DNA from: a virus | Length of the DNA: 64,000 nt | Virus record (IMG/VR): IMGVR_UViG_3300035703_000021 | Location: 62,001-126,000 of that record | Reading direction: 5' to 3' (one strand) | Part shown: in pieces, positions 8,953 through 58,245 of the stretch | Layout of the letters: each line of letters begins with the position of its first letter | Numbering within the stretch: position 1 is the stretch's first letter | Translations under genes and position numbers: made by a program | The notes under the pieces: generated by a model | Databases searched by the model: none | What the model was told of the DNA's origin: nothing | The model's input: the letters and a program-made list of their open reading frames with translations, nothing else

Positions 8953-9003
8953 GGTGGAGTAATACTTCCAGATGCCCTCTGTCGTAGGGCGTAATCGATA
9001 TAT

Positions 9004-9011
9004 CTTTAAAC
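9004..9011 (-). promoter_or_regulatory. Candidate late promoter octamer (GTTTAAAG)
   Basis: On the minus strand GTTTAAAG, followed by ATATATCG, lies 51 nt before the ATG of the 8221-8952 gene. The octamer contains the last codon and stop (GTT TAA) of the kinase gene. It would drive the 8952, 8208 and 4507 structural genes. Confidence 0.6.
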
Positions 9012-9593
9012 AGGGATAAGGCGATCGAGCAGGTTAAAGTCCCGGTCGGTGTCGCGAAGGACGGTGTGAGGGAGAAGGGAGTAGTGGTTGAGGTAGTTGT
9101 GCATGTAGTCGTAGTAAGCGTAGTGCTCGGCTTCCCGCGCTTTCATCTTATTCTTGATCCACCAGGCCGTGGCGTCCGGGTACTCCTCGCGTACCTCGAT
9201 GAGGTGGTGAGGCTGGCTCCACTCCCACTCCCGCTCGAGAAGGAACACTTTTACGTCCGAACTACGCTCCAGGAAGTAAGACTCAGCGGCCTGGGCCCAC
9301 TCATGGGAGATGGTGATCCGCCTCCGAAACTCGTCGTAGAAGCAGACTTCAGAGAACCCCCGATCACACAGGATGAACTCCGGCATCGTCTCCAGAACGG
9401 AGTCGAAGGGCCCGATGTACTGCTCAATGGGGTTGGAGTGGTGGGGTTGGGGGCCGGAGAAGTGCAGAGCGGTGGCGTCAAGGTCCCTGCGCCGGAACCG
9501 CTCGAGGGTATTCTCGATGATGGTGGATTTGCCAACTCTGTCGGCTCCGAGCAGAACGACTGTGACGGGCTTGGGCATTGGAAGTGAGATCAT
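9006..9593 (-). CDS. P-loop nucleotide kinase (thymidylate kinase-like)
   Basis: A 195-residue protein of the P-loop NMP-kinase type. The Walker A motif GADRVGKST is at residues 16-24. LCDRGFSEVCFYDEF, with Asp77 and Arg78, matches the DR-x-x-S/Y nucleoside-monophosphate-binding motif of thymidylate and deoxynucleoside kinases. A lid-like Arg-rich stretch follows at 110-145. It probably phosphorylates deoxynucleotides for phage DNA synthesis; polynucleotide kinase activity is an alternative. Two starts are possible, Met1 at 9593 or Met6 at 9578. Neither has a Shine-Dalgarno sequence, and the promoter -10 at 9603 leaves almost no leader for the first. Confidence 0.8.
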   Translation of the reverse strand: MISLPMPKPVTVVLLGADRVGKSTIIENTLERFRRRDLDATALHFSGPQPHHSNPIEQYIGPFDSVLETMPEFILCDRGFSEVCFYDEFRRRITISHEWAQAAESYFLERSSDVKVFLLEREWEWSQPHHLIEVREEYPDATAWWIKNKMKAREAEHYAYYDYMHNYLNHYSLLPHTVLRDTDRDFNLLDRLIPV

Positions 9594-9602
9594 AGTAGTC
9601 GT

Positions 9603-9611
9603 ATTATATCA
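9603..9611 (-). promoter_or_regulatory. Sigma-70 promoter with extended -10 (TGATATAAT)
   Basis: Read on the minus strand, TTGACC is followed after 18 nt by TATAAT preceded by TG-A, so both the -35 and extended -10 elements are good. The -10 ends only 9 nt before the kinase ATG at 9593, so the transcript would begin within a few bases of the start codon. The same 164-base divergent gap also holds the plus-strand octamer at 9720 and a GC-rich inverted repeat near 9637-9658. Confidence 0.7.
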
Positions 9612-9719
9612 TGGATAGTGGCTCGTGGTCAAGAGTGCGCGCTCGCGCGCTGGCGCCCGTAGCCCAGTGCATAGTAACTTTTTAACTATTACTTTTGACT
9701 AACGTACTAAAATACTAAA

Positions 9720-9727
9720 GTTTAAAG
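9720..9727 (+). promoter_or_regulatory. Candidate late promoter octamer (GTTTAAAG)
   Basis: GTTTAAAG followed by TAGAGATATAC lies 30 nt before the ATG at 9758, in an AT-rich part of the divergent gap. It belongs to the octamer family placed before structural genes. Confidence 0.6.
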
Positions 9728-9757
9728 TAGAGATATACGATCGCGCAGAGCCGGAAC

Positions 9758-10099
9758 ATGCCCGCCACCCCACAACCTCCTTTCCATCGCTGGGGAGTCA
9801 GATTCACAGCCGACTCCACTCATAACCTATCCTACCTCCAGACAGAGCACGACGAGAACGAGGATTTTGCCTACAGAGGGGAACTTTTCCTCAACGAGAC
9901 GCTGGACCAGGCGTACTACGTCGACAGCACCGGAGTGGCGAGGAAGTTGGGTGGCAGAGACCCGATCCCCTTCTCCCAGATCGACTTCACCGGGCTTCGT
10001 AACTTCGCCGACGACGCCGCAGCCGCCGCTGCTTCTCCCGCAGTGGCGCTGGGTGGGATGTATAGGACCGGAAGCACATTAAAGATCCGAGTGGTTTAA
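9758..10099 (+). CDS. Small putative virion protein
   Basis: A 113-residue protein of unknown function. It begins MPATPQPPFHRWGVRF, has a central segment (GELFLNETLDQAYYVDSTG) like the beta hairpins found at the N-termini of fibre proteins (an ELA.N...D..Y...G pattern), then an Ala-rich helix DDAAAAAASPAVALGG. The short C-terminal tail may be a trimerisation or attachment piece. It stands alone between the octamer at 9720 and the terminator at 10164. A tail-fibre-associated or head-fibre role is plausible. Confidence 0.65.
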   Translation: MPATPQPPFHRWGVRFTADSTHNLSYLQTEHDENEDFAYRGELFLNETLDQAYYVDSTGVARKLGGRDPIPFSQIDFTGLRNFADDAAAAAASPAVALGGMYRTGSTLKIRVV

Positions 10100-10101
10100 A
10101 G
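10094..10101 (+). promoter_or_regulatory. Octamer GTTTAAAG before a terminator and phoH
   Basis: The octamer overlaps the stop of the 9758 gene (GTT TAA AG). About 62 nt downstream the terminator hairpin begins, and phoH follows. If it is a promoter, it would make a transcript of about 80-95 nt ending at the hairpin, or reach phoH by read-through. It may instead be a chance match, because GTT TAA arises easily at stop codons. Confidence 0.35.
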
Positions 10102-10163
10102 ATTGTCAGGATGTGAAAACACTTCTACATGTCCCATAAGCATGAGTCAGAGTGACCCGAAGG

Positions 10164-10195
10164 CCCGAGGAGTTAGTAACTCCCGGGTCTTTTTT
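10164..10195 (+). terminator. Rho-independent terminator upstream of phoH
   Basis: A strong hairpin: CCCG pairs with CGGG around GGAGTTA/TAACTCC, separated by a very short loop, followed by TCTTTTTT. It ends transcription from the 9758 unit or attenuates transcription into phoH. No other gene of useful size lies between 10100 and 10220. Confidence 0.85.
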
Positions 10196-10220: not shown

Positions 10221-10964
10221 ATGGCCAGAAAATCAACACGGAAACAGCGCCAGCTCGAAGATAACAATCTGCTCTCGTCAGAGAGCACAGCTCCGCAGCC
10301 TAAGTTCCAAGAAAATCGTGTTATTATGCCTCGCAATCCCAACCAGGTGGACGCGATGAGATACCTACGCACGAGAACTCTCACGCTTCTCTCCGGGCCT
10401 CCTGGCACCGCTAAGACCCTTCTTGCTACCTACGTAGCCTGCGAGAAGATGCAGAAGCGCGAGATCGACAAAATCTACTACGTGAAGCCCGTTGTCAACG
10501 TCCCCGGTGAGCAGGGCCTCGGCTTCCTACCTGGCAACCTAGATGAGAAGATCGCTCCGCACATCAGCCCGATCCGCGACTCGTTGGAGGTGTTCATGCC
10601 CAAAGGCAAGGCCGAGTACCTCCTCTCAAAGAAGCACATCGAGTTTCTCCCCATCGAGCACCTCAGGGGGCGTTCGCTCCACCGCTGCATGATCATCGCC
10701 GACGAGATGCAGAACGCCACCACTCATAGCGTCATGACCATTCTCACCCGTCTCGGAGACGGATCGAGCGTGGCGGTACTGGGCGACGTAGTCCAGCGTG
10801 ACCTGGCCAACCGATTTGGCGGAGATGGCCTATCCGACGCCCTCAATCGCCTTCGCTTCCTTCCTGACGTCGGGCATGTTGAGTTCGGGTTTGATGACAT
10901 TGTTCGTTCGGAGTTTGTTCAGTCGGTGATCAGAGCGTACTCCGATCTCTACCAGTCAAAATAG
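10221..10964 (+). CDS. phoH: PhoH-like ATPase
   Basis: A 247-residue P-loop ATPase of the PhoH family. Walker A GPPGTAKT is at residues 59-66 and Walker B MIIADEMQN at about 157-165. The segments PVVNVPGEQGLGFLPG and LGDVVQRDL are also typical of the family. PhoH is very common in cyanophages; its function is uncertain, with RNA-related ATPase or phosphate-stress roles proposed for bacterial relatives. I start it at the ATG at 10221 because the longer frame would begin inside the terminator hairpin. Its promoter is unclear: it lies just after the terminator and ahead of the octamer at 10986. Confidence 0.93.
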   Translation: MARKSTRKQRQLEDNNLLSSESTAPQPKFQENRVIMPRNPNQVDAMRYLRTRTLTLLSGPPGTAKTLLATYVACEKMQKREIDKIYYVKPVVNVPGEQGLGFLPGNLDEKIAPHISPIRDSLEVFMPKGKAEYLLSKKHIEFLPIEHLRGRSLHRCMIIADEMQNATTHSVMTILTRLGDGSSVAVLGDVVQRDLANRFGGDGLSDALNRLRFLPDVGHVEFGFDDIVRSEFVQSVIRAYSDLYQSK

Positions 10965-10985: not shown

Positions 10986-10993
10986 GTTGAAAG
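10986..10993 (+). promoter_or_regulatory. Candidate late promoter octamer (GTTGAAAG)
   Basis: GTTGAAAG lies 31 nt before the ATG at 11025. A TATAAT at 10999-11004 follows closely, so a host-type -10 may also be present, though without the TG extension. Confidence 0.5.
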
Positions 10994-11024: not shown

Positions 11025-14000
11025 ATGGCCACAAAAATAAGTGGAAGTTTTAATCTTTCAGGTCAGTCACTAATCAGTGCACTTAGAAAGAGGGCGGGTA
11101 GACGCGAAGGCAATTCTAATTTCATAGGACTGCAGCGTTCCCTGGCGTTATCGGATGTTAACGATCCGACAAAGTCGCTGAACAACGTTCTCGACAAGAT
11201 CAGCCTTCTGCTTTCCGCGGAGCGTAATCAATACGGTTCCGGATTCAACGCCGTGGACTGGGACGTAACACGCGATTTCATAAACGAGAGGATCGACAAG
11301 GCGTTCCTCAGCCGCTTGGCCAACGCCTCCATCGGGGGCGGAAGTCTCGGTAGCACGGTGTCCATAACACCGAGAATAAGGATCCAGGACAGACTGAACT
11401 TCCTTAACTCGTTCTATGGTGAGGGGAGCTTTGCTGGGCTGCACAGCGGCCCAGACGCTCAGTTCTACAAGGCTCCAACACCCCTCCATATAGGGTTTAT
11501 CAAGTTCTCATTTAATGAGATCACCGGCTCCATGACTGTTACCGAGCTCAAGGGACCCGATGGCACCTCCGATATTACCGCCTCGAGCGTGCTTGGATCG
11601 GAGTCAGTGGTAGTGCTCGATCTCTCGCAGTACAGCAGCACCGGTTTTGAGGTGGATCTTGAGGGGCTAGGGATATCCGCCAGGCTACAGTCCCCGTCAA
11701 CCTGGACCGTGGAGGGTGATTCTGCCCTTGAAAAACTAAATAAGATCAAACTAGCGGTAGGAGGAGCGGGAACTTTCGCCACTCTCAGATTCAGGCTGGT
11801 GAGACCCTACTCGTTCCTCAACGCGCCGAGATGGTTCTACGAGTCCCCCTCGGTTTCGTCGGAGAGCGTGGCCGAAAGCGCCGACGATCTGAACCCAACC
11901 ACATCCCCCCGGGTACTCAAAAACGACAACGGCACCATTGTTCCTTTCGTGCAGAAGGGCTACTGGTACAGTCGTGGGTACGTTGAGACCAGATGGTCGC
12001 CAACGGAACTGTCCCTCGTTACAAACAACGGTGCCAATCCCTCTACTGTGGTGGAGGACTCCAATATGAGATGGCAGGAGCCTCCGTCGAAGCTTCGCAC
12101 TCAGACATACAACTGGGGGGTTAGGTGGGACGGATTTTTGCGCGTCACTGAGGGTACATACGCCTTCGAGATTCAGACAAACGCGCAGGTGAAGATCGAC
12201 ATGGCCATCGCCTCTGGTGGTGGCTGGGGGAACGTGTTCAACACTTCCACCGCCCCTAAGCAGGGAGACCAACTGTACATCTCATCGAGTACTTTTAATA
12301 CGTCGGCGTTGGATGACAGGTATAAGTATTTTCAGGCTACGGGCTGGGTGGCGTACGTTCCCATTACGATAAGAATGTACCACGGCGGCCCGGACAAGGT
12401 CCAGCCTGAGGAGGTGATCTCGCCTGAGCCCAACCTATTCATCAAGACCACGTCGCTCCCGTCTACTAAGACTTTCTACAGCAGAGACTACTCGGTGACG
12501 CTCGCGGGAACCGACGGCGCTTGGACTCTTACCAGTTCCAACCTTGCCGCTCTCATCTCCATCCTGCAGGACGCGAATGCTTCCGTGTCCTACTCATTGA
12601 CCGCTCTGGGGACCCAGGTGCTCGCGACCCCATTGGCTATCTCGCTGACAACCAACGGCACCACTGTCAGCAGCGCGACGACAGGACTCGCCGCCGGAAC
12701 TTACACTCTCGCAATCAGACCTAACCGCCCTACGGAGTTCAACGCGAACCTGTACGCCCTGTGGAAGGGTCGTATAGCGTCCCCTCAGTCCACTCATAAG
12801 AGTTACGCGGATTTGATCGATGGCTCATTTACTCCCGATATTCAGAAGATCGCCTTTGACTCTAGGCCGGAGTGGTGGAAAGTGAGTGAAGGCCACTCCT
12901 ACAACAACCAGCAGTTGCCTTCGTCGAGCAACGACCCTCTGGACGGATTCGTACGTAATTCATTTAAGAGCGTTCTGAAGTCAGACGCGCCAGGCGTCGG
13001 GCTTTACGGAAACGGAGGCAGCCCAGTCACGTATACCTCGCGCCCGAATATGATCCTGGGCGAGGCTCGGTTTGGTGTTACAGATACGTTAGGGTCCAAT
13101 TACATCGGTGTTCGGATCGTTCCTAATCTTCTCGGGGAGGGCGGAAAGTTCACTATTAACGCTCTGCCTGTTAATAATGCTACCTTTACCGACTCAACGC
13201 TTCTGGGCCAGAATGACCTTGGAGGTGGCTCTAATCACCTTACTTTCGCGGGGGATAAGCTTAATCCTAGGGTGATGCAGGTCTACCTATGGACCAACCC
13301 GACCATACCTTCAACTTCTACGTACAATAAGTACTTTCTTCACATCAATCTTACTAACGTAACGCAGTCAGATAACCCAGTTACTTACGGACTACCACCA
13401 TTCAGCAGCAATGAGTGGTTGTCTCCTATCACGATCATGGGCACCAGAGTGGCTAGTGATTCGGCATTTACAACGCCGTCGAATTTTGTCTCGCCCCTAC
13501 CTCTCACGGCGGAGAAGATCACTCTTGGAGCGTACGATCTTCTAGCGTTCTCCGTGAATCTTTCGTCTATCCTCGTCGGTGGTGGAGAGGTGAATCAATT
13601 TTCAGGTAAGTACCTTCAGTTTTTCACTGAAGACGACCTTGCGTTCCAGTACTCCAGAGTGGATACAGGGGAGTCGCTTTCGTTCGCTGACGTTCTAAAG
13701 CTAACTTACACGGGCACTGCACCTAACTACGTATTTCAAGGAGCGAGCAGCGAGATCCCCAGACCACCATCCGACCGCGTTACTCCGTTTGGATTCGATA
13801 AATCTCAATTCAGCACCGGACTGTGCTATCCTCCATACAGTATCGGCAATCCGCTGCTCAGTAGCGTTGCGATAGAGGACACTCCTCTGTACACAACTCC
13901 CAGCGGCAATTACGACGTGTTCTGGGGAGATCCTACCAAGTCGGGTCTGGGAGGTAATACCCTAACACTTACGGAGAAGATCGAGTTTCAGAGCGCCGAC

Positions 14001-14174
14001 GCCACGGGCATCGAAACGCTCAGCTCTCCTCCGACCGTGCTGTACTCCCAGTACACTCACAGACTGAAGATAGACTCCCCGCTCCAGGGTTCCTTCGACG
14101 AGGACGTGCTGGAGCACATCGGCAACGGTGAGAAGGTTAAGGAGTCCTACTACGCCTACGTTCAGCTGGCCTAA
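11025..14174 (+). CDS. Large virion protein with PA14-like domain
   Basis: A 1049-residue protein, probably a tail appendage or adhesin. Residues about 320-460 resemble a PA14 carbohydrate-binding beta barrel: a segment with the WSPTEL start, then NWGVRWDGFLRVTEGTYAF, QVKIDMA and a late VPITIRMYHGG strand. The rest is beta rich with Ser/Thr/Gly-rich turns; the N-terminal 130 residues are helical (SLISALRKRAGRREGN). PA14 domains bind glycans, so contact with host surface polysaccharide is plausible. It is the only gene behind the octamer at 10986. Its stop overlaps the converging gene by four bases, with no visible terminator. PA14 is called from sequence pattern only. Confidence 0.75.
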   Translation: MATKISGSFNLSGQSLISALRKRAGRREGNSNFIGLQRSLALSDVNDPTKSLNNVLDKISLLLSAERNQYGSGFNAVDWDVTRDFINERIDKAFLSRLANASIGGGSLGSTVSITPRIRIQDRLNFLNSFYGEGSFAGLHSGPDAQFYKAPTPLHIGFIKFSFNEITGSMTVTELKGPDGTSDITASSVLGSESVVVLDLSQYSSTGFEVDLEGLGISARLQSPSTWTVEGDSALEKLNKIKLAVGGAGTFATLRFRLVRPYSFLNAPRWFYESPSVSSESVAESADDLNPTTSPRVLKNDNGTIVPFVQKGYWYSRGYVETRWSPTELSLVTNNGANPSTVVEDSNMRWQEPPSKLRTQTYNWGVRWDGFLRVTEGTYAFEIQTNAQVKIDMAIASGGGWGNVFNTSTAPKQGDQLYISSSTFNTSALDDRYKYFQATGWVAYVPITIRMYHGGPDKVQPEEVISPEPNLFIKTTSLPSTKTFYSRDYSVTLAGTDGAWTLTSSNLAALISILQDANASVSYSLTALGTQVLATPLAISLTTNGTTVSSATTGLAAGTYTLAIRPNRPTEFNANLYALWKGRIASPQSTHKSYADLIDGSFTPDIQKIAFDSRPEWWKVSEGHSYNNQQLPSSSNDPLDGFVRNSFKSVLKSDAPGVGLYGNGGSPVTYTSRPNMILGEARFGVTDTLGSNYIGVRIVPNLLGEGGKFTINALPVNNATFTDSTLLGQNDLGGGSNHLTFAGDKLNPRVMQVYLWTNPTIPSTSTYNKYFLHINLTNVTQSDNPVTYGLPPFSSNEWLSPITIMGTRVASDSAFTTPSNFVSPLPLTAEKITLGAYDLLAFSVNLSSILVGGGEVNQFSGKYLQFFTEDDLAFQYSRVDTGESLSFADVLKLTYTGTAPNYVFQGASSEIPRPPSDRVTPFGFDKSQFSTGLCYPPYSIGNPLLSSVAIEDTPLYTTPSGNYDVFWGDPTKSGLGGNTLTLTEKIEFQSADATGIETLSSPPTVLYSQYTHRLKIDSPLQGSFDEDVLEHIGNGEKVKESYYAYVQLA

Positions 14175-15853: not shown

Positions 15854-18800
15854 TTAGTTGAGTCTTAGGATCTGGTTGGAAGCGTTTCTCCAGCAGATTC
15901 CGCTGATGCCGGATGGGCAGGAGGCGAGGGAGGTTAGGCCCGAGTCCGTGATCGACTGGTTTCGAGTCGTAACAACCTCGTAAGTTGTTGATACTGTCGT
16001 CGGGGATGTAAGTGGGGCCACGTAGGTAAATCCCATATCAAACCTGATGCCGGACAGGTTTCTGAACTTAGTGCCCAGTGGGCTCTCAGTTACTATCTGT
16101 GTTTTGTTCCTCTGTATCTTGTGATAAGCTCCGTTCACGAAGGCTCCTGGAACCTGCCTTGTTGTCGTACCGGCAGCCACCAGCTTGGTTTCGGAAGCAC
16201 CGGCTTCATTTGTAACGGTGACCTGATTGAATACGTCAAGTGTCTCCGATCTGAAAAGCGAAGTAACCACGTCCGGGCCGGGGGCAACTGTGGTGGGAAA
16301 GATCTCCTGCTGCGTATAGTTAGAGTACTTGCCAGCCGAAGAGAGCTTGTTTCCCGAGAGTCTCACTAAGCAGTTAGTGAATCTCCGCAGTTTATCTATA
16401 TCAACAACCTGGGATATGAGTCTCTGCACCACGGAGACGGGAAGGTTGTTCTCTGACAGATCCACGGTTATCTTCCTGGAGCCACCAGAGAAGATTTTTG
16501 ATAGCGTCGAGGAAGAGCAGTCCGTGAGCATATTCCTACCAAAATCCACCGCGGAGTACGAGTCGTCAGCCACCTTGCCGAATCCGTTTCTGATATCCAG
16601 AGTCCCAGAGAGCCTGCAGTTTCTTGCTCTGAACCTCGATACTTCCGAGAACCCTGACTTGAACCACCCGGAGATGTCAACAGTATTTCTGGTGAATACG
16701 AGAGTGCTGGATAGCGGATCAGGAATATTGCTGCTGATGGTCACGGTTGTATCTGTCACCGAGAGCACTCTGGCCAGCTCCGGCCCCGTGGCACTGGCCC
16801 TCACGGAGTCATTTACCAGCACCTTCTGCCTCATCGCTGAGCCACCGGTCAGTGTGAATACGGCATCATCCGGATCGGCGCTCGAGGCCGGAATAGCTCT
16901 GGAGATGCTCAGGCCACTTACCGACGTGCCCGAATGCGAACCGGATACGCAAGCGTCTCTCAACTCCGGTACTCCCCAGTCGCTTCTGTAAACACTCTCA
17001 AGGCAGTTATTCACATCCACCACCTGAACTTCCGTAGTTGATGTGCCCTCGAAATCGGGAGGAAGGGCCCCTCCGTTCTCCGCGTTGCAACTCCAGGCGA
17101 CTACGGAAACGATATCGCGGGCAAAGTAGAAATTGGACGGGGCGATAGACAGCGTTCTGAGGTCGTAGAAATCCGACCGGTTAATGTCCACTCCGATCTG
17201 CTTTCTGTCCGTCTCGTAAAGTCTCGTGGTTGGGAAGATGGGGAATCTTCCGGTCAGTCTACTGGCCACAGATTCAAATGATGTCAGGCTGTACAGATTC
17301 TTCAAGTCGTTCTTCCTGAATCTATATGCCGGACCGAAGTACCCTATCGAGAATCCTGTGAGCTTGTGCTCGGCTCCTAAAGCCCGGTCGGGAGCAAAAT
17401 TACCGGGAAGAAGGAAGCTTACACCGTTATCCACAATCGCGGACAGACTATTGCATCTCCCAATGCTTATAGCGACGAGGTTTCCGGTCTCAGTGGCCGG
17501 ATTACTACCGAGCGAGGGCATGACCCCCGTGGTGTTAGATTCGTACAGGTAGAGACCCGTTAGCTTCGGTGCCCTGAGAGCCGAGGACACATTGTCGAAC
17601 TTAGCGCCGCCGGAGAACGACGCGTCAAGAGACGTAAGAGAACTCCACTGTCCGGACTGAAGATTGATTGAGACACCCGTTCTGTTGATATCGATGGAGA
17701 CGGTGTTCAGCAGCCAAGTGCTCCAGCTGGTGTCCGATGGGTTATTGATGTAACCAACGATATTGTGATGCTGCCCGTACCTTCCTCCAACATTAAATGA
17801 TCTCATCAAGTACCGTGATACGTGATTACTGTTGGTATGGTCGGCTGAAGTTCCGACGTTCGAGATATTCCCCTCCGCCCCTGAGCCGTAGATGTTGTAA
17901 TCGATCAGAAAGCCGTTATTTTTGATCCTAGGAAGACTACCGAACAGGTATCTGTAAAGCCGGTCTGGATCGAAGTTAGACCAGTCAAGAGACCTCAGAT
18001 TCGGGAACACATCGTCGAATCTAGGGCTTCTGCCATAGAATCGGTCCCCTAGCCTAAGTGACTCCATCGCTGAGAACTCCCTGAAGTCGGTTCCAGCGAC
18101 CCGGCTCTCGTTGCGAATGTACTTTCTGAATATCGGATCCGACCAGTCATTGCCGTCCTCGTTGAGGAATACGCCTTTCTTAGGAACGGTTAAGTAGCTG
18201 ATTCCGGTGTACAGCTGGCCAAACCCAGTTGCAACTGCCGAGGAATCTCGTATATCAAACCATCCCATCGGCCCGCTTCTCCAGACGTCTCCGGAGTTGC
18301 CTAGATCCAGGACTCTCAGCTTATTCTTTAGGGTCTTAAGCCACAGCGGAAGGATCGTTATCGATCCCTCGGACATTCTAAAGACCTCGAGGTTGTTAAA
18401 TCCAATGAGTCCTAAGTCCTTGCGATCGGGGAACTCCTTCACGTCTATGCCGGAAAACTCCAGCCCCTTAACCTTCTCGGGGTTTACGTAGATGTACAGG
18501 TACAGATCGTAGAGATTCTGGTATCCGGTTTTTGTGATGTCTAGGTTCAGAGTGTATGTCAGCGATCCCTCTTGCTGACTTGCCGACGAAACCGGCAGGA
18601 ACTCCACCGGCGCGGCGTTAGGACGGGCTTGGGCCGGCTGGATCTGGAATCCGTAGAAGTACGGAGCGTTAGCGTCGGTAAACGTAAACGTGATAGAGCC
18701 TGTGGCCATACGGCAGAATATTCTCAGTGGCGTATTCTTGGTGGCCAAAAGCCTAACGGGTGCGCTTGTTCCCGTGTTGCCGTTATCTATGTCAACTCTG

Positions 18801-19469: not shown

Positions 19470-19477
19470 CTTTCAAC
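19470..19477 (-). promoter_or_regulatory. Candidate late promoter octamer (GTTGAAAG)
   Basis: On the minus strand GTTGAAAG followed by TTAACTAGTAACG lies 25 nt before the ATG at 19444, in the 38-base gap after the 19483-23517 gene. Confidence 0.55.
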
Positions 19478-28889: not shown

Positions 28890-29072
28890 CTAGCTTTCAA
28901 CAAAAAATCTTCCGAGGAGCGGGTGGGAGTCAAGTCCCGACTCGCGGATCTCTTCCAGAGATTTTTTGTACTCAGCCTCTAGACCCTCGGAGTTTTTAAG
29001 AGCGTTGAGTTTATCCTCGATCTGGTGGGGATCCGGGTACTTGCCGTCGATCCTGTATATATCAGATATCAT
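28890..29072 (-). CDS. Small hypothetical protein
   Basis: A 60-residue, charged, largely helical protein (NALKNSEGLEAEYKKSLEEIRESG). The function is unknown. Its ATG overlaps the end of the upstream gene by about 11 bases, showing tight coupling with the two small virion-type genes before it. Its last codons (GTT GAA AGC TAG) hold the octamer that seems to be the promoter of the beta-helix gene. Short proteins with an LDSHPLLGRFF-like end occur in many cyanophages in my memory, but I cannot name a role. Confidence 0.6.
   Translation of the reverse strand: MISDIYRIDGKYPDPHQIEDKLNALKNSEGLEAEYKKSLEEIRESGLDSHPLLGRFFVES
28894..28901 (-). promoter_or_regulatory. Candidate late promoter octamer (GTTGAAAG)
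   Basis: On the minus strand GTTGAAAG followed by CTAGAAAAG lies 21 nt before the ATG at 28872. It is built into the last codons of the preceding small gene. Confidence 0.5.
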
Positions 29073-29815: not shown

Positions 29816-29823
29816 CTTTAAAC
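29816..29823 (-). promoter_or_regulatory. Candidate late promoter octamer in divergent gap
   Basis: GTTTAAAG on the minus strand, followed by TTACTAAGACCTATAAAC, lies 42 nt before the ATG at 29773. It is nearly palindromic (CTTTAAAC on the plus strand) and lies 22 nt before the plus-strand ATG at 29846, so it might serve both directions. Confidence 0.55.
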
Positions 29824-30007: not shown

Positions 30008-30028
30008 AGCTAACGGAATCCTCCACAG

Positions 30029-31055: not shown

Positions 31056-31084
31056 CATAGATACTTAAACCGAGCGAGCAGTTT

Positions 31085-35132: not shown

Positions 35133-35140
35133 CCTTAAAC
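35133..35140 (-). promoter_or_regulatory. Candidate late promoter octamer (GTTTAAGG)
   Basis: On the minus strand GTTTAAGG followed by GTATAAAAAG lies 36 nt before the ATG at 35096. The same GTTTAAGGGTA core precedes the sheath gene at 58204. Confidence 0.6.
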
Positions 35141-38394: not shown

Positions 38395-38402
38395 CTTTAA
38401 AC
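38395..38402 (-). promoter_or_regulatory. Candidate late promoter octamer (GTTTAAAG)
   Basis: On the minus strand GTTTAAAG followed by TAGGTACATGAG lies 64 nt before the ATG at 38330, the longest leader in the set. The 18-bp palindrome sits within this leader. Confidence 0.55.
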
Positions 38403-40043: not shown

Positions 40044-40051
40044 CTTTCAAC
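40044..40051 (-). promoter_or_regulatory. Candidate late promoter octamer (GTTGAAAG)
   Basis: On the minus strand GTTGAAAG followed by ATTTGAAGATTCG lies 44 nt before the ATG at 39999, in the gap after the 40055-40360 stop. Confidence 0.5.
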
Positions 40052-42630: not shown

Positions 42631-42638
42631 CTTTAAAC
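42631..42638 (-). promoter_or_regulatory. Candidate late promoter octamer (GTTTAAAG)
   Basis: On the minus strand GTTTAAAG followed by GTTCATATCG lies 36 nt before the ATG at 42594. Its GTTTAA is the final Val codon and stop of the 42633-43550 gene. Confidence 0.55.
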
Positions 42639-45959: not shown

Positions 45960-45967
45960 ATTTAAAC
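45960..45967 (-). promoter_or_regulatory. Candidate late promoter octamer (GTTTAAAT)
   Basis: On the minus strand GTTTAAAT followed by ACTGGTTAGATATC lies 31 nt before the ATG at 45928, in the gap after the portal gene. Confidence 0.55.
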
Positions 45968-47937: not shown

Positions 47938-48141
47938 TTACTCTTCGGAGCTGTTGATGTCTTTTGATTCTTTAAACTCGAAAGAGTTAGACCGATCGAC
48001 GTAAACGACATCCGCGTCCAGTATCAGATCGTACAGTTCCTGGGCGCTGATCTCACCCTTATTGTATCTTTCGATGGCCTCGTCAGCCCCATCGACGATC
48101 ACCGGCTGGGAGTTGGTGACTATATTCACTCCTCTTTCCAT
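47938..48141 (-). CDS. Small hypothetical protein before portal
   Basis: A 67-residue protein of unknown function, with an acidic helical C-terminus (ERYNKGEISAQELYDLILDADVVYVD). The ATG at 48141 is preceded by AAGGAGG at proper spacing, so I use it instead of longer in-frame starts. It overlaps the end of the upstream gene by 16 bases and ends five bases before the portal ATG, so the three are coupled. It may be a portal accessory or head-assembly protein. Confidence 0.6.
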   Translation of the reverse strand: MERGVNIVTNSQPVIVDGADEAIERYNKGEISAQELYDLILDADVVYVDRSNSFEFKESKDINSSEE

Positions 48142-49521: not shown

Positions 49522-49543
49522 AACCTACCTTACGTTCCAATAG

Positions 49544-49551
49544 CTTTAAAC
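49544..49551 (-). promoter_or_regulatory. Candidate late promoter octamer (GTTTAAAG), divergent pair
   Basis: On the minus strand GTTTAAAG followed by CTATTGGAACG lies exactly 22 nt before the ATG at 49521. It is paired with the plus-strand octamer at 49557, also 22 nt from its ATG. Confidence 0.65.
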
Positions 49552-49556
49552 TTAAA

Positions 49557-49564
49557 GTTTAAGG
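49557..49564 (+). promoter_or_regulatory. Candidate late promoter octamer (GTTTAAGG), divergent pair
   Basis: GTTTAAGG followed by TTTATCTAG lies exactly 22 nt before the ATG at 49587. It is 13 bp from its minus-strand partner, measured start to start. Confidence 0.65.
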
Positions 49565-49586
49565 TTTATCTAGATACGTCGCGTCC

Positions 49587-52500
49587 ATGACTCCGCAGTT
49601 TTTTGAAGAGATTCGTATCAATTTGCAGAGACTCGTTCTGAGAAGCGTGTCCCTCTACGAGGAGAAATTCGGCAAATTCAAGATCGATGCCTCCAAGCAA
49701 AGCTTCCTAAACAGTGGAATTGAGATCCTCAGCCTCGTTCTCGATAGGGTCGAGAGAGATGAGGAGGTCTCCGTGCTTCCCTTTAAGCAGATCCTGCTGG
49801 AGATTCTTTTTGAGCTGGAGTTCGATACGGACGTTATAAAGAACCTACTGCCCTATCTCAAGTCAGGTCTTGAGGAGTCTATAAGGTCAAAGCCAAATTA
49901 CGACGCCAACCTCACGCGTATCATAGACAGCTACTTCATCCTGTTCTCGGAGAACATCAGTAGCTACTCGTTCTACGCGTCCAGTTCAGCGCTCGATATC
50001 CTTCAGGAGCAGCCGGAGTACCAGTACTCCGAAAAGCTTTACGCTCTTGTGCCTCTGGAGATCGACGAGAGTGCCGGCAGAGTATACACTCTCTTCCCGA
50101 GAAGCAGGTACTGGGAGGAGTATCAGTTGCTTAGCGAGGAATCCTCCTACTCCCCTCTCAGCTACAATAGAACGGCTTCCAAGCTCGGACTGGCTAAATA
50201 CGCCATTCCTATCACCTACCAGAGTCTTGTCGTGTACGACGGGGACCTGTACAAACTGAGTCCTGACGTTGCTGCTCCCACCCGTGTATATTTTGATCAG
50301 ACCCAGTGGACAAAATACTCACCTAAAAAATTCGATTCCTCAAAATCATTCAGAACTGTCTACGAATCGAAGATCCGCTCCGCCTTCTCCAAAGTAACCG
50401 AGGAGGGATTCGATGTCAATTCGATCGTATCCGATTCGAACGTATCAAGATACTCCAGAGACGTAGCGGTGGATGAGTCACTGCTCCCATCAACCTTCGG
50501 CGGAATAGGAAAGCAGATCCTAGACTCTATCAAAAACCTTAGGAAGATCTCCGAGGCTTTCGGAGGGTACCAGGGTTCTCCCGTCGGCGGTGTGGAGTAC
50601 ATCACAAATTTCTCCGAGTCGCTTCTAGCTGCCACGTTAGGACGGTACCTTCCTGAGGCTTACGATACCTACGAGGGGAAATCGACTTTTGGCCGATTCG
50701 ACATACTCTTCAAGTCCTCGATCACAACGAATAGGATCCCAGGATTGAAGTTTCTTGACAAATTCGGAAGCCTTAAATCATTTGTCCAGGGCCAAAAACT
50801 ACCCACCGGGACCACGATCGCGCGCGAAAAGGTCGTTTACAACCCGGTCTACTCGCAGTTTTTCAACGGGATACAGGACAGGTACAACGTTCTACTCGCT
50901 ACGACAACCTACGCGGAGAAGGCAAGAGTCGATCTTCTTCTGTTCGCGATAGAGAGCCTTTACAGAAGGTCGCTAATTGTCGGTGATACAGTAGCTGCTA
51001 TATCCAATACACTTGACTCCACGGGCAAGGTGCCAGGCTACGAGGGGCTTGGATCAGTAAAAACGCAGATAGACGAGCTCCAGAGAGTCTTTCCGCCCAC
51101 GATGTACGTGCTTGATCAGGGTGGCATCGCGGGATTCACAGGCGCTATTAAGTACCTTCTCAACAGCTACTCTAGGTTCTCAAAGGCGGTGATAGATCCG
51201 TTGCTTCCGGGTCAGTCTCTGGAGTTTTTTGGTCCTTGGGTGGAGAGAATCGCCAACAAACTCGAGGAGGTTAATCTACTCCTGAAGAATCTTGGGATAA
51301 CAACCTCGGCGTTCATCCCGAACCTCTCATTCGAGTCATTCGAGGCAAACAATCAAAGAACGATCTCCTATCTGAGTTCGCTTGGCTTCAGGGACTACGA
51401 GATAAATAAGCTTCTAGAAGCTGAGGATTTCGCCCAGCTGGTCTCCAATTTCGCGCCGCTTTCAGACTCTAACGATCTGAAGTCCTTTTTCAAAGCCTAT
51501 GAGCTGAGCCAGCTAATATACGAGTTTGGCGGACAGAGCGGCGTTGACGCCTACCTATCCTTCCTGTACTCTCAGAACTCACTTAGCTCCCTGCTCAACA
51601 TCCTGAATCTGTCGCAAAAAGACAAGTCTAAAGCAACGTACGTTAACATAGACAAGTACCCAACGCTAATCGGCCTTCTCATCGGGCTCACGTACGCGGT
51701 AGACGCTTCGCAGCTCGTGAAGTTCACGGAGATTCTGGGGGAGAATAATCTGACCCTTTTGCAATCTATCTCCTACCTCTATCAGAACGGACAGAGCACA
51801 ATCATCAAGAACAGGGAGGACGTGGACTTCCTAGAGCCACTTGTTGAGCAAATGATCACTGGGGTATACAAAGATGATCCGTTCTCGTCTCCGACGCTAA
51901 ACTACGATCAAGTTAACTCTCTGGCACCTATCGCCCTTAAGCAGTGGACGGAGATCATAGGAGATAACCTGGGCCGTATGGATTCCAAGAGTCTCGTAAA
52001 AAATCTGTACGATAGGGCGCAGGGACTGACTCCGAAAGAGCTTGTCGCGATCCTGAACATGCCGGACTCGCCCAATAACTTCGGGGCTCTTGTGGATGGG
52101 TTTAGTGGCGGATCATTTACCAGCTTCTTGAGATACGCCAGTCTATCCGGAATCGCGCTTAAGCTCGGATTCTACAAGAACTCGTACCAGACGGACAACT
52201 TTAAGATCGCAGATGGTCAGGAGTTTTACGCTATACCGAAATTAGTCGAAGCGATAGATGGCCTTATCGACTCAATATCGATTATCAGAACCATATTCAG
52301 CTCAAAATTGAACTACACCGTAACCACGGACAAGGATTTTGCCGATAGCCTCCAGCCTCTGATCTACTCCCAGAACAAAGAGTTCGAAGCCATTCCCCAG
52401 CTCATCTCGCTGAGAGCCCAGGGTGGTAGTCTGCCAGGACAGACTTCTCTCGCCTCCTCGTCGGTCATCGCTGAGAGCCCAGGCATCGGAAACTCGAGAG

Positions 52501-53450
52501 TGCCAAACAGAGTCCCAGTGGCCAACTCGGTCACTCCTGAGCAGGCCAGAGTGATCTTTGAGGCGACTAGTGAGGCACGGGAGCTGGGAGCCGTAGTCGG
52601 AGCGCGTAGTAGCCTTATAAGTAAGTACGTGAAGTTCTCGGACGAAAACATCCTGGCAAATGAAATCGCTCTCACAGACGAAACCTCCGGACTGTCGGAG
52701 GCTAGATTACAAAAATCCTCCTTCGCGCCCGCGACAAGATTCGAACTCGATGACGGCCAGGCCGCTTCCAAAGCCAAACCCTACACCGTCCTGGGTATGT
52801 ACGAAGAGCTGGAAGGGGGCCCATCTCTTAAAAACTCCACTCTAGGAGCCAATTACATCTCCGCAGAGGAGGACAACGGTGTTGAGACTGCTTTTAATCC
52901 TGTCGAGTCGTGTAAAAGGTTCGGAGGGGCGAACTGCGAGTCGCTGTACTCCGACTCCCAGGCCCGGTGCGTCAAAGGCTTTAGCAAGGCTCTCTTCCCG
53001 GAGACCTACTCGGAAGTTCCTGGGCTCTCAACATCCTCGGTAGCTGTGGACAGGCCTCTAGGAACTTTCGCGGAGTACAAACCCTCTAAGCTCCTCGTGC
53101 CTACAACTTCCTACGCCGTCCCGCACGCCTACATGTCTCTCCTTCCCGACACCACGCTCATCGGCGAGAAGGGAGAGCCTATCCTGATGACCGTGTTCGC
53201 TGACCCTCTAGTCTACGAGTCTGGAGGATCGGAGCTGAGCGAGTACGGAAATACCGAGTTTGGCATCGTTGAGTTCATAAGGGCAAAGCTGGAGAGGAAC
53301 ACCGAGTTCAGCTGCGCTACTTTCGAATCCCCCTTCTACTACCAGATCTGCATGAATATCATGAAGTGCAAGAGGTTCTCCCCACCGCTAGATGGCCAGT
53401 ACTCTCTCGATTTCTGTCCTCGGACCCTCTCAGGAGGTAGACTCAAGTGA
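49587..53450 (+). CDS. Very large virion protein of unknown function
   Basis: A 1287-residue protein that I do not recognise. Residues 1-130 are helical (EIRINLQRLVLRSVSLYEEKF). The central 1000 residues alternate Ser/Tyr-rich helices (for example LLKNLGITTSAFIPNL and SLLNILNLSQKDK) with repeats of the type FG-x-x-x-Y...SLS. The C-terminal region has cysteines (CKRFGGANCESLYSD) and aromatic-Ser strands. It is too long for a baseplate wedge of known small type, and tape-measure coiled coils are not obvious. It begins a plus-strand unit ending at 55174. A structural role is inferred from size, position and late promoter. Confidence 0.65.
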   Translation: MTPQFFEEIRINLQRLVLRSVSLYEEKFGKFKIDASKQSFLNSGIEILSLVLDRVERDEEVSVLPFKQILLEILFELEFDTDVIKNLLPYLKSGLEESIRSKPNYDANLTRIIDSYFILFSENISSYSFYASSSALDILQEQPEYQYSEKLYALVPLEIDESAGRVYTLFPRSRYWEEYQLLSEESSYSPLSYNRTASKLGLAKYAIPITYQSLVVYDGDLYKLSPDVAAPTRVYFDQTQWTKYSPKKFDSSKSFRTVYESKIRSAFSKVTEEGFDVNSIVSDSNVSRYSRDVAVDESLLPSTFGGIGKQILDSIKNLRKISEAFGGYQGSPVGGVEYITNFSESLLAATLGRYLPEAYDTYEGKSTFGRFDILFKSSITTNRIPGLKFLDKFGSLKSFVQGQKLPTGTTIAREKVVYNPVYSQFFNGIQDRYNVLLATTTYAEKARVDLLLFAIESLYRRSLIVGDTVAAISNTLDSTGKVPGYEGLGSVKTQIDELQRVFPPTMYVLDQGGIAGFTGAIKYLLNSYSRFSKAVIDPLLPGQSLEFFGPWVERIANKLEEVNLLLKNLGITTSAFIPNLSFESFEANNQRTISYLSSLGFRDYEINKLLEAEDFAQLVSNFAPLSDSNDLKSFFKAYELSQLIYEFGGQSGVDAYLSFLYSQNSLSSLLNILNLSQKDKSKATYVNIDKYPTLIGLLIGLTYAVDASQLVKFTEILGENNLTLLQSISYLYQNGQSTIIKNREDVDFLEPLVEQMITGVYKDDPFSSPTLNYDQVNSLAPIALKQWTEIIGDNLGRMDSKSLVKNLYDRAQGLTPKELVAILNMPDSPNNFGALVDGFSGGSFTSFLRYASLSGIALKLGFYKNSYQTDNFKIADGQEFYAIPKLVEAIDGLIDSISIIRTIFSSKLNYTVTTDKDFADSLQPLIYSQNKEFEAIPQLISLRAQGGSLPGQTSLASSSVIAESPGIGNSRVPNRVPVANSVTPEQARVIFEATSEARELGAVVGARSSLISKYVKFSDENILANEIALTDETSGLSEARLQKSSFAPATRFELDDGQAASKAKPYTVLGMYEELEGGPSLKNSTLGANYISAEEDNGVETAFNPVESCKRFGGANCESLYSDSQARCVKGFSKALFPETYSEVPGLSTSSVAVDRPLGTFAEYKPSKLLVPTTSYAVPHAYMSLLPDTTLIGEKGEPILMTVFADPLVYESGGSELSEYGNTEFGIVEFIRAKLERNTEFSCATFESPFYYQICMNIMKCKRFSPPLDGQYSLDFCPRTLSGGRLK

Positions 53451-56431: not shown

Positions 56432-56439
56432 CTTTAAAC
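56432..56439 (-). promoter_or_regulatory. Candidate late promoter octamer (GTTTAAAG)
   Basis: On the minus strand GTTTAAAG followed by ACCATGTAGAG lies 20 nt before the ATG at 56411. It lies back to back with the plus-strand extended -10 promoter at 56448. Confidence 0.55.
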
Positions 56440-56693: not shown

Positions 56694-56697
56694 GCCT

Positions 56698-57069
56698 TTA
56701 GGTAGAGGCTCCGCCCACTTTATCGATAGGATCGTAGGTCTTTCCAGGCACTTCCGCATCCTTATTTGCTTCCAGTAGATTCTCCGCCACGGCAGGCTCC
56801 TGAAGCCCTGAAGGATCCATTTGAGTCCACTGCTGCCATCCCCACATATCCTCCGAGCCAAGCGGGTGCGGGATTTGGGGCTTGGAGCCAGCGGCCCGGG
56901 CTCTCGAGTTCCTGAGAGGGCCAGGGTTAACCCGGTTGGATGTTCTGAGATAGTCCGGCTGCGAGAGTTGCTGGCGTACGAGCGACGTTATCTGGGTATC
57001 TGTGGACCTGTAATCCGAAGAAGCCTTAAGCTCTTCCCACTTCTCGTAGGGGTTGTTATTTACAGCCAC
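56698..57069 (-). CDS. Hypothetical protein (GTG start)
   Basis: A 123-residue protein of unknown function. It starts at GTG (57069) as VAVNNNPYEKWEELKASS with Met read at the first codon, and is rich in Pro, Arg and Gln in the middle (TSNRVNPGPLRNSRARAAG). It looks mostly disordered with a short helical head. The octamer at 57092 lies exactly 22 nt upstream, supporting this start. It may be a head-assembly or accessory protein, since it is expressed divergently with the chaperone-like genes. Confidence 0.6.
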   Translation of the reverse strand: MAVNNNPYEKWEELKASSDYRSTDTQITSLVRQQLSQPDYLRTSNRVNPGPLRNSRARAAGSKPQIPHPLGSEDMWGWQQWTQMDPSGLQEPAVAENLLEANKDAEVPGKTYDPIDKVGGAST

Positions 57070-57091
57070 GGCATCCGTCTCTCTAAGATAA

Positions 57092-57099
57092 ATTTAAAC
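57092..57099 (-). promoter_or_regulatory. Candidate late promoter octamer (GTTTAAAT), divergent pair
   Basis: On the minus strand GTTTAAAT followed by TTATCTTAG lies exactly 22 nt before the GTG at 57069. It is paired with the plus-strand octamer at 57106. Confidence 0.6.
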
Positions 57100-57105
57100 A
57101 AAGGG

Positions 57106-57113
57106 GTTTAAAG
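57106..57113 (+). promoter_or_regulatory. Candidate late promoter octamer (GTTTAAAG), divergent pair
   Basis: GTTTAAAG followed by AAAGGAACAC lies exactly 22 nt before the ATG at 57136, repeating the spacing of the pair at 49544/49557. Confidence 0.6.
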
Positions 57114-57135
57114 AAAGGAACACATCATAAACACC

Positions 57136-57513
57136 ATGGCGGTAAGCAAAATGAGTCGGGAGGCGTCAGTGGTGGCGACTCACGCTGATGAAGAAGACGA
57201 TCTCTTCGACTTCGGAGAGCCGGAAGTTATTCCAGTTGAGATCTCTCCGGGTAAGTTCCTGACGCTGAAGGAACCTACTGCTAACGATCTTATCGAGATC
57301 AGCAAGATCTCCAATAATAAGAACATCGACGAGATCGAAGCAACTCTGCAGACCATCTGCATCCTCTACGTTCCCGATCCAGGGAAAAGACGACTGTCGT
57401 TAAAAGAAGCTAAAAGGCTCCGTCCCAAGCAGCTGAAAAAGCTGGGAGCGGCCATCAACGAGCTGCTTGGAATGGACGAGGAACCCGCAGCCGATGAAGA
57501 AGGAGAGCAGTGA
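57136..57513 (+). CDS. Putative tail assembly chaperone 1
   Basis: A 125-residue protein. The segment VEISPGKFLTLKEPTANDLIEISK matches the 'F-x-T-L-x-EPT-x-x-DL' start of Mu gp41-type tail assembly chaperones. The rest is helical (DEIEATLQTICILYV, then RLRPKQLKKLGAAINELLG) with an acidic tail. Tail chaperones coat the tape measure during assembly. It overlaps the next gene, which is in the +1 frame, by 20 bases. A shared LxFRDITG-type motif in that gene suggests duplication. It is just upstream of the sheath gene. Confidence 0.6.
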   Translation: MAVSKMSREASVVATHADEEDDLFDFGEPEVIPVEISPGKFLTLKEPTANDLIEISKISNNKNIDEIEATLQTICILYVPDPGKRRLSLKEAKRLRPKQLKKLGAAINELLGMDEEPAADEEGEQ

Positions 57514-57943
57514 TCTTGACGTTGTGAGAAATCACGACTACACGGTAACTATCACGGACGCGAAAGGTCGAAAATTAAACTTCAGGGACATCACAGGAAG
57601 CGACCTGGAATACCTTGACAGGATCATAGGAAGCTTCGAAGAGAAAAGCGAGAAACACCTCTCATTTGACGATGTTATCTCTGTGTTAACAACACTCAGC
57701 ACCAGGGATTTCGACTTTAAGAGGCTAACGCAGAGAACTCTCTCTCAGCTCTTCGAGGCTGTTCAGGAGCACATCCTCTGCAACTATATGGCAAAGTACG
57801 TGTGGTTGGGCCAGTGCTACAGCATCCAAAACGGATCGTTCTCTGGACTTAGCGCAATGGAAGAGGTACCGATGACAAAATTTATCGCGATGATCCAGAT
57901 TCACAAGGAGGCGATAGAGTCAATTAACAAACCCACTGAATGA
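57494..57943 (+). CDS. Putative tail assembly chaperone 2 (paralogue)
   Basis: A 149-residue protein. Its KGRKLNFRDITGSDLEYLDRI repeats the pattern of KFLTLKEPTANDLIEISKI in the preceding gene, so the two look like paralogues. The rest is helical. The ATG at 57494 overlaps the previous gene by 20 bases in another frame. Many phage chaperone pairs are made by ribosomal frameshifting; no convincing slippery heptamer is visible in the overlap, so reinitiation is more likely here. Its stop overlaps the next start (ATGA). Confidence 0.6.
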   Translation: MKKESSDLDVVRNHDYTVTITDAKGRKLNFRDITGSDLEYLDRIIGSFEEKSEKHLSFDDVISVLTTLSTRDFDFKRLTQRTLSQLFEAVQEHILCNYMAKYVWLGQCYSIQNGSFSGLSAMEEVPMTKFIAMIQIHKEAIESINKPTE

Positions 57944-58182
57944 CAGACTCCGAAAGACTGAAACTCATCCTGATACTGTGCTCGATCTGCCTTAAGCAGG
58001 ATATCTCGGAGCTCAAAGCGTTTATCAGCGTAAGCGCTAGGTACGTAGACACAAACGACTTCAATAAGATACTTAGAAAATCGATCAGAGTCCTAGAGAC
58101 TAGGAGGTGCGGAGCTATATCGTGCCCCGACTGGCTCATGGGGGAACTTTTCCAGCTTTACAAGATCGACGTGATCGACTAA
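57940..58182 (+). CDS. Small hypothetical protein
   Basis: An 80-residue helical protein (TDSERLKLILILCSICL, then FNKILRKSIRVLETRRC), with four cysteines. The function is unknown. Its ATG overlaps the chaperone-like gene's stop (ATGA), so the three are translated together. The next gene, sheath, has its own octamer promoter 21 bases after this stop. Confidence 0.6.
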   Translation: MTDSERLKLILILCSICLKQDISELKAFISVSARYVDTNDFNKILRKSIRVLETRRCGAISCPDWLMGELFQLYKIDVID

Positions 58183-58203
58183 ACACGCATAAAATAGCCG
58201 TTT

Positions 58204-58211
58204 GTTTAAGG
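58204..58211 (+). promoter_or_regulatory. Candidate late promoter octamer (GTTTAAGG)
   Basis: GTTTAAGG followed by GTAGTAATG lies 34 nt before the sheath ATG at 58246. Its GTTTAAGGGTA core matches that at 35133. Confidence 0.6.
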
Positions 58212-58245
58212 GTAGTAATGAAAGATATAGTGTCTTCAATCCCCT

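What the first reader, a model, noticed from the sequence alone, without database searches (positions are those of the whole stretch)
8953..58245. A single octamer, GTT(T/G)AA(A/G)(G/T), precedes nearly all structural transcription units
Seen at 9004, 9720, 10986, 19470, 28894, 29816, 35133, 38395, 40044, 42631, 45960, 49544, 49557, 56432, 57092, 57106 and 58204 (plus a doubtful one at 10094), each about 20-65 nt before a start codon and in the correct orientation. By rough reasoning a degenerate octamer of this kind would be expected about 16 times in the whole window on both strands, but less than once or twice in the small total of upstream gaps. No T4 late TATAAATA motif is seen. Inference: this is the -10-like late promoter of this phage.
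Basis: partly seen in the sequence, partly recalled or inferred. Interest (0 to 1): 0.8.

Follow-up and report, generated by a model that had tools for sequence, protein, structure and literature searches.

The report
Late promoter box of S-TIM5-like cyanophages
An eight-letter DNA switch, GTTTAAAG, sits just in front of the virion genes of a whole lineage of viruses related to cyanophage S-TIM5, and is most likely read by a sigma factor the virus carries itself, so it looks like the lineage's previously unlisted "late gene" start signal.

Summary
All 18 listed octamers are present at the stated coordinates. The window has 35 matches against 12.7 expected, and 18 lie 10-70 nt upstream of a co-directional start against 0.9 expected. 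Motif discovery run without the octamer as input returns GTTTAAAG in this record, in every GC class of its IMG/VR relatives tested, and in cultured cyanophage S-TIM5 (genus Aurunvirus), the nearest named relative. Among 93 genes shared with S-TIM5, 19 carry the box in both phages and 10 in only one (Fisher p = 4e-11). In S-TIM5 it precedes 18 of 25 virion genes that follow a gap, against 3 of 22 replication or host-like genes.

The window encodes a sigma factor (2437-3189) whose DNA-reading part is invariant across the lineage. The sigma operon itself carries a host-type TGGTATAAT promoter instead. No -35 element is found. A short TAGA initiator lies 6 bp downstream, about where transcription should start.

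Best reading: GTTTAAAG is an extended -10-type late promoter read by the phage sigma on host RNA polymerase. The T4 factors gp33 and gp45 were not found, with working controls. Transcript mapping was not possible. New variant of a known kind.

The parts
9004..9011 (-). GTTTAAAG box, 51 nt before structural gene 8221-8952
   Evidence: S-TIM5 orthologue (105232-105987) has GTTTAAAG at -28
9720..9727 (+). GTTTAAAG box, 30 nt before 9758-10099
   Evidence: S-TIM5 orthologue has the box at -27
10094..10101 (+). GTTTAAAG, doubtful distance (119 nt) to the PhoH-like gene 10221-10964
   Evidence: the S-TIM5 PhoH-like gene also has GTTTAAAG 82 nt upstream, which favours it being real
10986..10993 (+). 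GTTGAAAG box, 31 nt before 11025-14174
   Evidence: S-TIM5 GTTTAAAG at -26
19470..19477 (-). GTTGAAAG box, 25 nt before 15854-19444
   Evidence: no box at the S-TIM5 orthologue
28894..28901 (-). GTTGAAAG box, 21 nt before 26602-28872
   Evidence: S-TIM5 GTTTAAAG at -33
29816..29823 (-). GTTTAAAG box, 42 nt before 29465-29773
   Evidence: S-TIM5 GTTTAAAG at -36
31063..31070 (-).
35133..35140 (-). GTTTAAGG box, 36 nt before 34725-35096
38395..38402 (-). GTTTAAAG box, 64 nt before 35145-38330
   Evidence: S-TIM5 GTTTAAAG at -39
40044..40051 (-). GTTGAAAG box, 44 nt before 38425-39999
42631..42638 (-). GTTTAAAG box, 36 nt before 40714-42594 (tail fibre-like)
45960..45967 (-). GTTTAAAT box with TAGA initiator 6 bp downstream, 31 nt before 45500-45928
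   Evidence: S-TIM5 orthologue has the same variant GTTTAAAT at -34
47970..47977 (-).
   Evidence: box in 56 of 57 portal upstream regions across IMG/VR, with invariant synonymous sites
49544..49551 (-). GTTTAAAG box, 22 nt before 49051-49521; back to back with the next
   Evidence: S-TIM5 57054, same layout
49557..49564 (+). GTTTAAGG box with TAGA initiator 6 bp downstream, 22 nt before 49587-53450
   Evidence: S-TIM5 57041
56432..56439 (-). GTTTAAAG, doubtful: no convincing start within about 150 nt
57092..57099 (-). GTTTAAAT box with TAGA initiator 6 bp downstream, 22 nt before 56698-57069
   Evidence: S-TIM5 GTTTAAAG at -22
57106..57113 (+). GTTTAAAG box, before 57136/57169-57513; divergent with the previous
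   Evidence: S-TIM5 GTTTAAAG at -25
58204..58211 (+). GTTTAAGG box, 34 nt before the tail sheath gene 58246-60900
   Evidence: S-TIM5 sheath gene has GTTTAAAG at -39
2437..3189 (+). phage sigma factor (250 aa, Sigma70 region 2 plus region-3-like part plus C-terminal helical domain), proposed reader of the box
   Evidence: 67% identical to S-TIM5 sigma ('SigF')
2075..2083 (+). TGGTATAAT, host-type extended -10 promoter of the sigma operon (ORF 2120-2440, then sigma); no GTTTAAAG here
   Evidence: conserved in most of the closer relatives that were aligned

Best explanation
GTTTAAAG is the core of the late (virion gene) promoter of the S-TIM5-like cyanophage lineage, and works as an extended -10-type element without a -35 partner. 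Proposed order of events: (1) host RNA polymerase with host sigma transcribes earlier genes, including the phage sigma operon, from TATAAT-type promoters (the sigma operon carries TGGTATAAT). (2) The phage sigma (window 2437-3189) binds host core polymerase; its regions 2.3-2.4 and 3.0 read and open GTTTAAAG. (3) Transcription starts at a short initiator, TAGA, whose first A is 8 bp after the octamer; this would put the octamer at about -15 to -8, with T at -12, A at -11, and GTT where an extended -10 contact lies. (4) Leaders of about 20-25 nt then precede the virion genes. Shown: the box, its position, its conservation, its gene-class bias, the initiator, the sigma gene, its host-type promoter sequence, and that the phage RNA polymerase families searched for were not found. 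Inferred: that this sigma reads this box, the start position, and the timing.
For: Enrichment and orientation. EM motif discovery on upstream regions returns GTTTAAAG in the own record (about 32 of 76 gaps), in three GC classes of relatives, in S-TIM5 and in pooled contigs with a 52-65% identical sigma. 236 hits 8-80 nt upstream in 65 relatives against 17 expected. Shared promoters with S-TIM5: 19 both, 5+5 one only, 64 neither. Gene-class bias in S-TIM5: 18/25 virion genes after a gap against 3/22 replication plus host-like genes, p = 9e-5. Portal box present in 56/57 loci even though it lies in coding sequence and its T/A synonymous sites are disfavoured in the GC-rich genomes. TAGA at offset 5-7 in 38 of 127 promoters, 24 of them at offset 6, against 0-3 at the other offsets; no -35 information (upstream mean 0.025 bits). 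Sigma factor present, residues 67-89 and 97-110 invariant in 18 homologues, its own promoter host-type. Phages without this sigma are not enriched (count vs reversed-word control): Syn9 3 vs 7, P-SSM2 7 vs 10, MaAM05 16 vs 12; with it: own record 24 vs 3, S-TIM5 36 vs 8, S-TIM54 38 vs 6. No T7-type RNA polymerase (working control Syn5) and no beta-prime subunit.
Against: No transcript 5' ends, timing data or sigma-DNA binding data were available. The sigma-box link is correlational and rests on one lineage. The initiator is recognisable in only about 30% of promoters. The C-terminal domain of the sigma aligns with region 4 of bacterial sigmas in a fold search, so a -35 contact cannot be excluded on protein grounds. 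A few boxes precede hypothetical genes or lie among tRNA genes, so the box may serve more than late genes. The class bias uses deposited S-TIM5 annotation. Relatives within a clade are not independent of each other.
Confidence: 0.8

Rival explanations
1. The octamer is a -35 element (GTTTAA resembles the -35 box of SigB/SigF-type sigmas, from memory) read by sigma region 4, with a -10 element further downstream.
For: The protein is annotated SigF in S-TIM5 and its close relatives and has a C-terminal domain that aligns with region 4 of bacterial sigmas in a fold search.
Against: A -35 at that place would start transcription about 30 nt after the octamer, but 62 of 127 boxes end less than 30 nt before the start codon (median 30, S-TIM5 median 27), so about half would start at or inside the ORF. 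No -10 signal appears at SigB-like (GGGTAT) or sigma-70-like spacing. Pfam region 4 is not detected anywhere in either genome.
Confidence: 0.07
2. The octamer is the binding site of a phage activator that works with host sigma, like MotA at T4 middle promoters; TAGA plus AT-rich sequence is the -10.
For: TAGAWW lies a fixed 6 bp downstream, and about 10% of promoters have a TATAAT-like hexamer at offset 9.
Against: The octamer carries nearly all the information while TAGA is weak and nothing after it is conserved. TATAAT is depleted at box-bearing gaps (1/24) relative to others (15/58) in S-TIM5. A -10 at that place would leave very short leaders in many cases. No conserved DNA-binding regulator other than the sigma was identified, though not every hypothetical gene was searched.
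Confidence: 0.07
3. The box is real but is read by a host group 3 sigma rather than the phage sigma.
For: Phages often use host sigmas, and cyanobacteria have several alternative ones.
Against: Cyanophages of related hosts without this sigma (Syn9, P-SSM2) show no enrichment. The box is constant over relatives from 37 to 58% GC, as is the phage sigma's DNA-reading part.
Confidence: 0.04
4. It is a post-transcriptional signal in mRNA leaders (processing site or translation element) rather than a promoter.
For: It lies 20-60 nt before start codons.
Against: In a few cases it directly abuts a terminator-like hairpin and T-run of the preceding unit, so it is at the edge of a unit. It heads divergent back-to-back units. 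Its enrichment tracks the presence of the phage sigma. No Rfam family matches the window.
Confidence: 0.02

Closest known systems
T4 late promoter and gp55/gp33/gp45 system (PMC2988020)
   Same: An 8-bp, -10-only late box read by a small phage sigma on host core polymerase; the T4 late promoter is likewise described as resembling extended -10 promoters with recognition confined to the downstream site.
   Different: The box is GTTTAAAG rather than TATAAATA. gp33 and the gp45 clamp are not detected in this record or in S-TIM5, while both ring in Syn9 and P-SSM2. This sigma has a region-3-like part and a C-terminal helical domain, whereas gp55 resembles sigma-70 only in domain 2.
phiEco32 / 7-11 phage-encoded sigma promoters (PMC4331800)
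   Same: A phage sigma with a short single-block promoter (TAATGTATA) in front of structural genes, and host-type promoters for other genes.
   Different: Different host group and different box; the sigmas were not compared directly here.
Cyanophage S-TIM5 (NC_019516, genus Aurunvirus) sigma factor ('SigF')
   Same: Orthologous sigma (67% identity), same gene neighbourhood (terminase - small ORF - sigma), same box at orthologous genes.
   Different: The S-TIM5 record annotates the sigma gene but no promoter box, and no paper in the library describes one.
Ma-LMM01 late promoters (PMC5780444)
   Same: A cyanophage whose late promoters were studied by transcriptome and motif analysis.
   Different: It has no gp55-type sigma and its late genes carry host SigA-like promoters, the opposite strategy.

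Membership tests
Phage sigma-dependent late promoter | a short motif at a set place upstream of late (virion) transcription units | tested here: met
Phage sigma-dependent late promoter | phage-encoded sigma-70-family protein | tested here: met
   Sigma70_r2 above the Pfam cut-off for the window protein and matched by all 18 homologues; fold search hits bacterial sigmas
   no T7-type polymerase (control Syn5 rings), no beta-prime; this record may be incomplete, but the complete S-TIM5 genome is also empty
Phage sigma-dependent late promoter | transcripts start a fixed distance after the box, late in infection | not testable with these tools
   no RNA data held
Phage sigma-dependent late promoter | the phage sigma binds and opens the box | not testable with these tools
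   needs in vitro transcription
T4-type late transcription (gp55 system) | TATAAATA late box | tested here: not met
   2 copies in the window (35684, 42728), both inside genes; GTTTAAAG instead
T4-type late transcription (gp55 system) | gp33 co-activator | tested here: not met
   Syn9 gp33 finds P-SSM2 but not this record or S-TIM5
T4-type late transcription (gp55 system) | gp45 sliding clamp | tested here: not met
   PF09116 rings in Syn9 and P-SSM2, not in this record or S-TIM5; PF02916 was uninformative
SigB/SigF-type (group 3) -35/-10 promoter | GGGTAT-like -10 at 12-15 bp from GTTTAA | tested here: not met
   no peak in 127 promoters
S-TIM5-like lineage (Aurunvirus relatives) | orthologous virion and replication genes in matching order with S-TIM5 | tested here: met
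   93 gene products with an S-TIM5 match at E <= 1e-4; no megablast match in the phage collection for window 35000-58300

The most novel reading that the evidence does not exclude
The S-TIM5-like cyanophages run late transcription with one stand-alone phage sigma that does with a single protein what T4-like cyanophages of the same hosts do with gp55, gp33 and the gp45 clamp. It reads an eight-base extended -10 box plus a TAGA initiator, and its DNA specificity has stayed frozen while the genomes drifted from 37 to 58% GC.
Probability: 0.55. Interest if true: 0.6.

Novelty: new variant of a known kind. Interest (0 to 1): 0.5.

Why it matters
It gives a widespread cyanophage lineage, one with a cultured member (S-TIM5 on Synechococcus WH 8102), a complete and testable late-gene switch: box, start site, sigma and the promoter of the sigma itself. 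It suggests that myoviruses of the same hosts use at least two unrelated late systems (T4-type in Syn9 and P-SSM2, this one in S-TIM5). It also offers a candidate orthogonal promoter-sigma pair for cyanobacteria, and a signature for marking transcription units in metagenomic contigs of this group.

Tried and rejected
T4-type late system: rejected (no gp33, no clamp, no TATAAATA at promoters). Phage RNA polymerase as reader: none found. The clamp test with PF02916 was uninformative because Syn9 was also silent; PF09116 worked. -35 reading of the octamer: disfavoured by leader geometry and lack of a -10. Sigma-70 -35/-10 pairs at boxes: no TTGACA peak. Shine-Dalgarno positions were not informative: 21 of 117 leaders have one against 12.8 after shuffling. 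AlphaFold of the sigma is of middling confidence (mean pLDDT 64; C-terminal domain about 85), so the region 4 assignment stays open. Literature: no paper held on S-TIM5 promoters, and the octamer as a word occurs only in an unrelated paper; the S-TIM5 genome paper itself was not found in the library, so prior mention there cannot be excluded.
Full report
WHAT THE WINDOW IS. The window is bases 62001-126000 of a 138,862-base IMG/VR virus record. Its proteins match portal, terminase, sheath, head protease and major head families. In the record as a whole, 93 gene products have a match in cyanophage S-TIM5 (NC_019516, genus Aurunvirus, host Synechococcus WH 8102), in matching order, although the 23 kb tested has no close nucleotide match in the phage collection. 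It is therefore an S-TIM5-like myovirus; a cyanobacterial host is inferred from that kinship (no psbA was found in this possibly incomplete record).

THE OBSERVATION. The pattern GTTKAARK occurs 35 times against 12.7 expected. 18 hits lie 10-70 nt upstream of a co-directional start against 0.93 expected from position alone. 19 of 57 upstream segments carry it against 1.6 after dinucleotide shuffling of the same segments; reversed and complemented patterns score 0. Hits elsewhere are near the chance number. Two of the listed sites (10094, 56432) are doubtful by distance, and two sites were missed (31063, 47970). Motif discovery that was not told the octamer returns GTTTAAAG in about 32 of 76 gaps of the record, and k-mer ranking puts GTTTAA, GTTTAAA and GTTTAAAG first for lengths 6, 7 and 8.

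CONSERVATION. 65 portal loci were fetched from IMG/VR. In them the octamer lies 8-80 nt upstream of starts 236 times against 17 expected, and motif discovery returns GTTTAAAG independently in AT-rich distant, AT-rich near and mid-GC groups. In S-TIM5, using its deposited annotation, motif discovery again gives GTTTAAAG. Among the 93 shared genes, 19 have the box in both phages, 5 only here, 5 only in S-TIM5, 64 in neither (p = 4e-11); even the variant GTTTAAAT is shared at the gene next to the portal. The box before the portal gene lies inside the end of the preceding ORF as (..G) TTT AAA (G..), yet 56 of 57 loci keep a box. In the GC-rich genomes TTT and AAA are the minority codons, so codon preference does not explain it. 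Contigs whose sigma is only 52-65% identical still carry it.

WHICH GENES. In S-TIM5, 18 of 25 virion genes that follow a gap of at least 20 nt have the box, against 1 of 12 replication genes and 2 of 10 host-like genes (p = 9e-5). In this record the genes matching ribonucleotide reductase, thymidylate synthase, primase, DNA polymerase and the methylase lack it. In the window, nearly every co-directional run of virion genes begins with a box; the terminase run enters from outside the window. The word 'late' rests on this gene-class bias; timing is not measured.

ANATOMY OF THE PROMOTER. 127 non-redundant promoters were aligned on the octamer. The octamer carries nearly all the information. Upstream (-50 to -4) there is almost none (mean 0.025 bits, maximum 0.13), so no -35 element is visible. 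Downstream, TAGA occurs at offset 5-7 in 38 promoters, 24 of them at exactly 6, against 0-3 at each other offset. Nothing after TAGA is conserved. If its first A is the start site, the octamer spans about -15 to -8, putting T at -12 and A at -11 as in ordinary -10 elements and GTT at the extended -10 position; this is inference. The distance from octamer to start codon has a median of 30 nt, and 62 of 127 are below 30, so a -35 reading would start transcription at or inside many ORFs. In a few places the box directly abuts a terminator-like hairpin and T-run.

The record encodes one recognisable sigma-70-family protein (window 2437-3189), in the order terminase - small CxxC ORF - sigma, as in S-TIM5, where it is annotated RNA polymerase sigma factor (SigF in the close relatives). 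It has region 2 and a weak region 3 match. Residues 67-89 and 97-110 (regions 2.3-2.4 to 3.0) are invariant in 18 homologues that are 66-98% identical overall. A C-terminal helical domain aligns with region 4 of bacterial sigmas by fold, but Pfam region 4 is silent. No T7-type polymerase (control Syn5 rings) and no beta-prime subunit was found. GTTTAAAG is over-represented only in the phages with this sigma: own record 24 against 3 for the reversed word, S-TIM5 36/8, S-TIM54 38/6; Syn9 3/7, P-SSM2 7/10 and Microcystis phage MaAM05 (a distant sigma) 16/12 are not.

A CASCADE. The sigma operon has no octamer in this record. Here and in most of the closer relatives aligned, TGGTATAAT (extended -10, host type) stands just before the small ORF that precedes the sigma gene (window 2075-2083). 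In S-TIM5, TATAAT is found in 15 of 58 gaps without the box and in 1 of 24 with it. This fits host sigma making the phage sigma, which then turns on the GTTTAAAG promoters.

COMPARISON. It works like the T4 late promoter, an 8-bp element recognised only at the -10 site (PMC2988020), and like the phiEco32/7-11 phage sigma promoters (PMC4331800). It is not a member of the T4 system: gp33 and the gp45 clamp ring in Syn9 and P-SSM2 but not here or in S-TIM5, and TATAAATA is not at the promoters. It contrasts with Ma-LMM01, whose late genes use host SigA-like promoters (PMC5780444). I found no description of this box in the papers held; the S-TIM5 genome paper was not found there, so priority is not certain.

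VERDICT. The kind is known; the box, the sigma pairing and the lineage-wide constancy appear to be new. Not shown: transcript starts, timing, and direct recognition by the sigma.

Noticed in passing
window 2064-2120 and upstream of sigma in L083-L113: The phage sigma operon (small thioredoxin-like CxxC ORF 2120-2440, then sigma) is headed by a conserved TGGTATAAT host-type extended -10 promoter.
   Followed up: yes
L012 8630-12837 (record about 134630-138837): A cluster of 24 tRNA genes within about 4.2 kb at the end of the record, with a few GTTTAAAG/GTTGAAAG copies among them.
   Followed up: no
window 49544-49564 and 57092-57113; S-TIM5 57041-57061 and 49537-49569: Divergent units have back-to-back boxes only 5-6 bp apart (5 and 17 bp in S-TIM5); two polymerases could hardly occupy both at once.
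   Followed up: partly
window 47970-47977: The portal promoter box is embedded in the coding end of the preceding gene and holds the minority codons TTT and AAA in GC-rich relatives.
   Followed up: yes
window 29846-30388: A short plus-strand run of two small conserved genes of unknown function inside the virion region, without the box here and in S-TIM5.
   Followed up: no
loci L013-L077: The lineage spans about 37-58% GC across contigs whose portal proteins are 60-96% identical, a wide range for close relatives.
   Followed up: no
S-TIM5 record (L079-L082), gaps without the box: The strongest motif in these gaps is a GGGC...GCCC hairpin with T-run, terminator-like.
   Followed up: no
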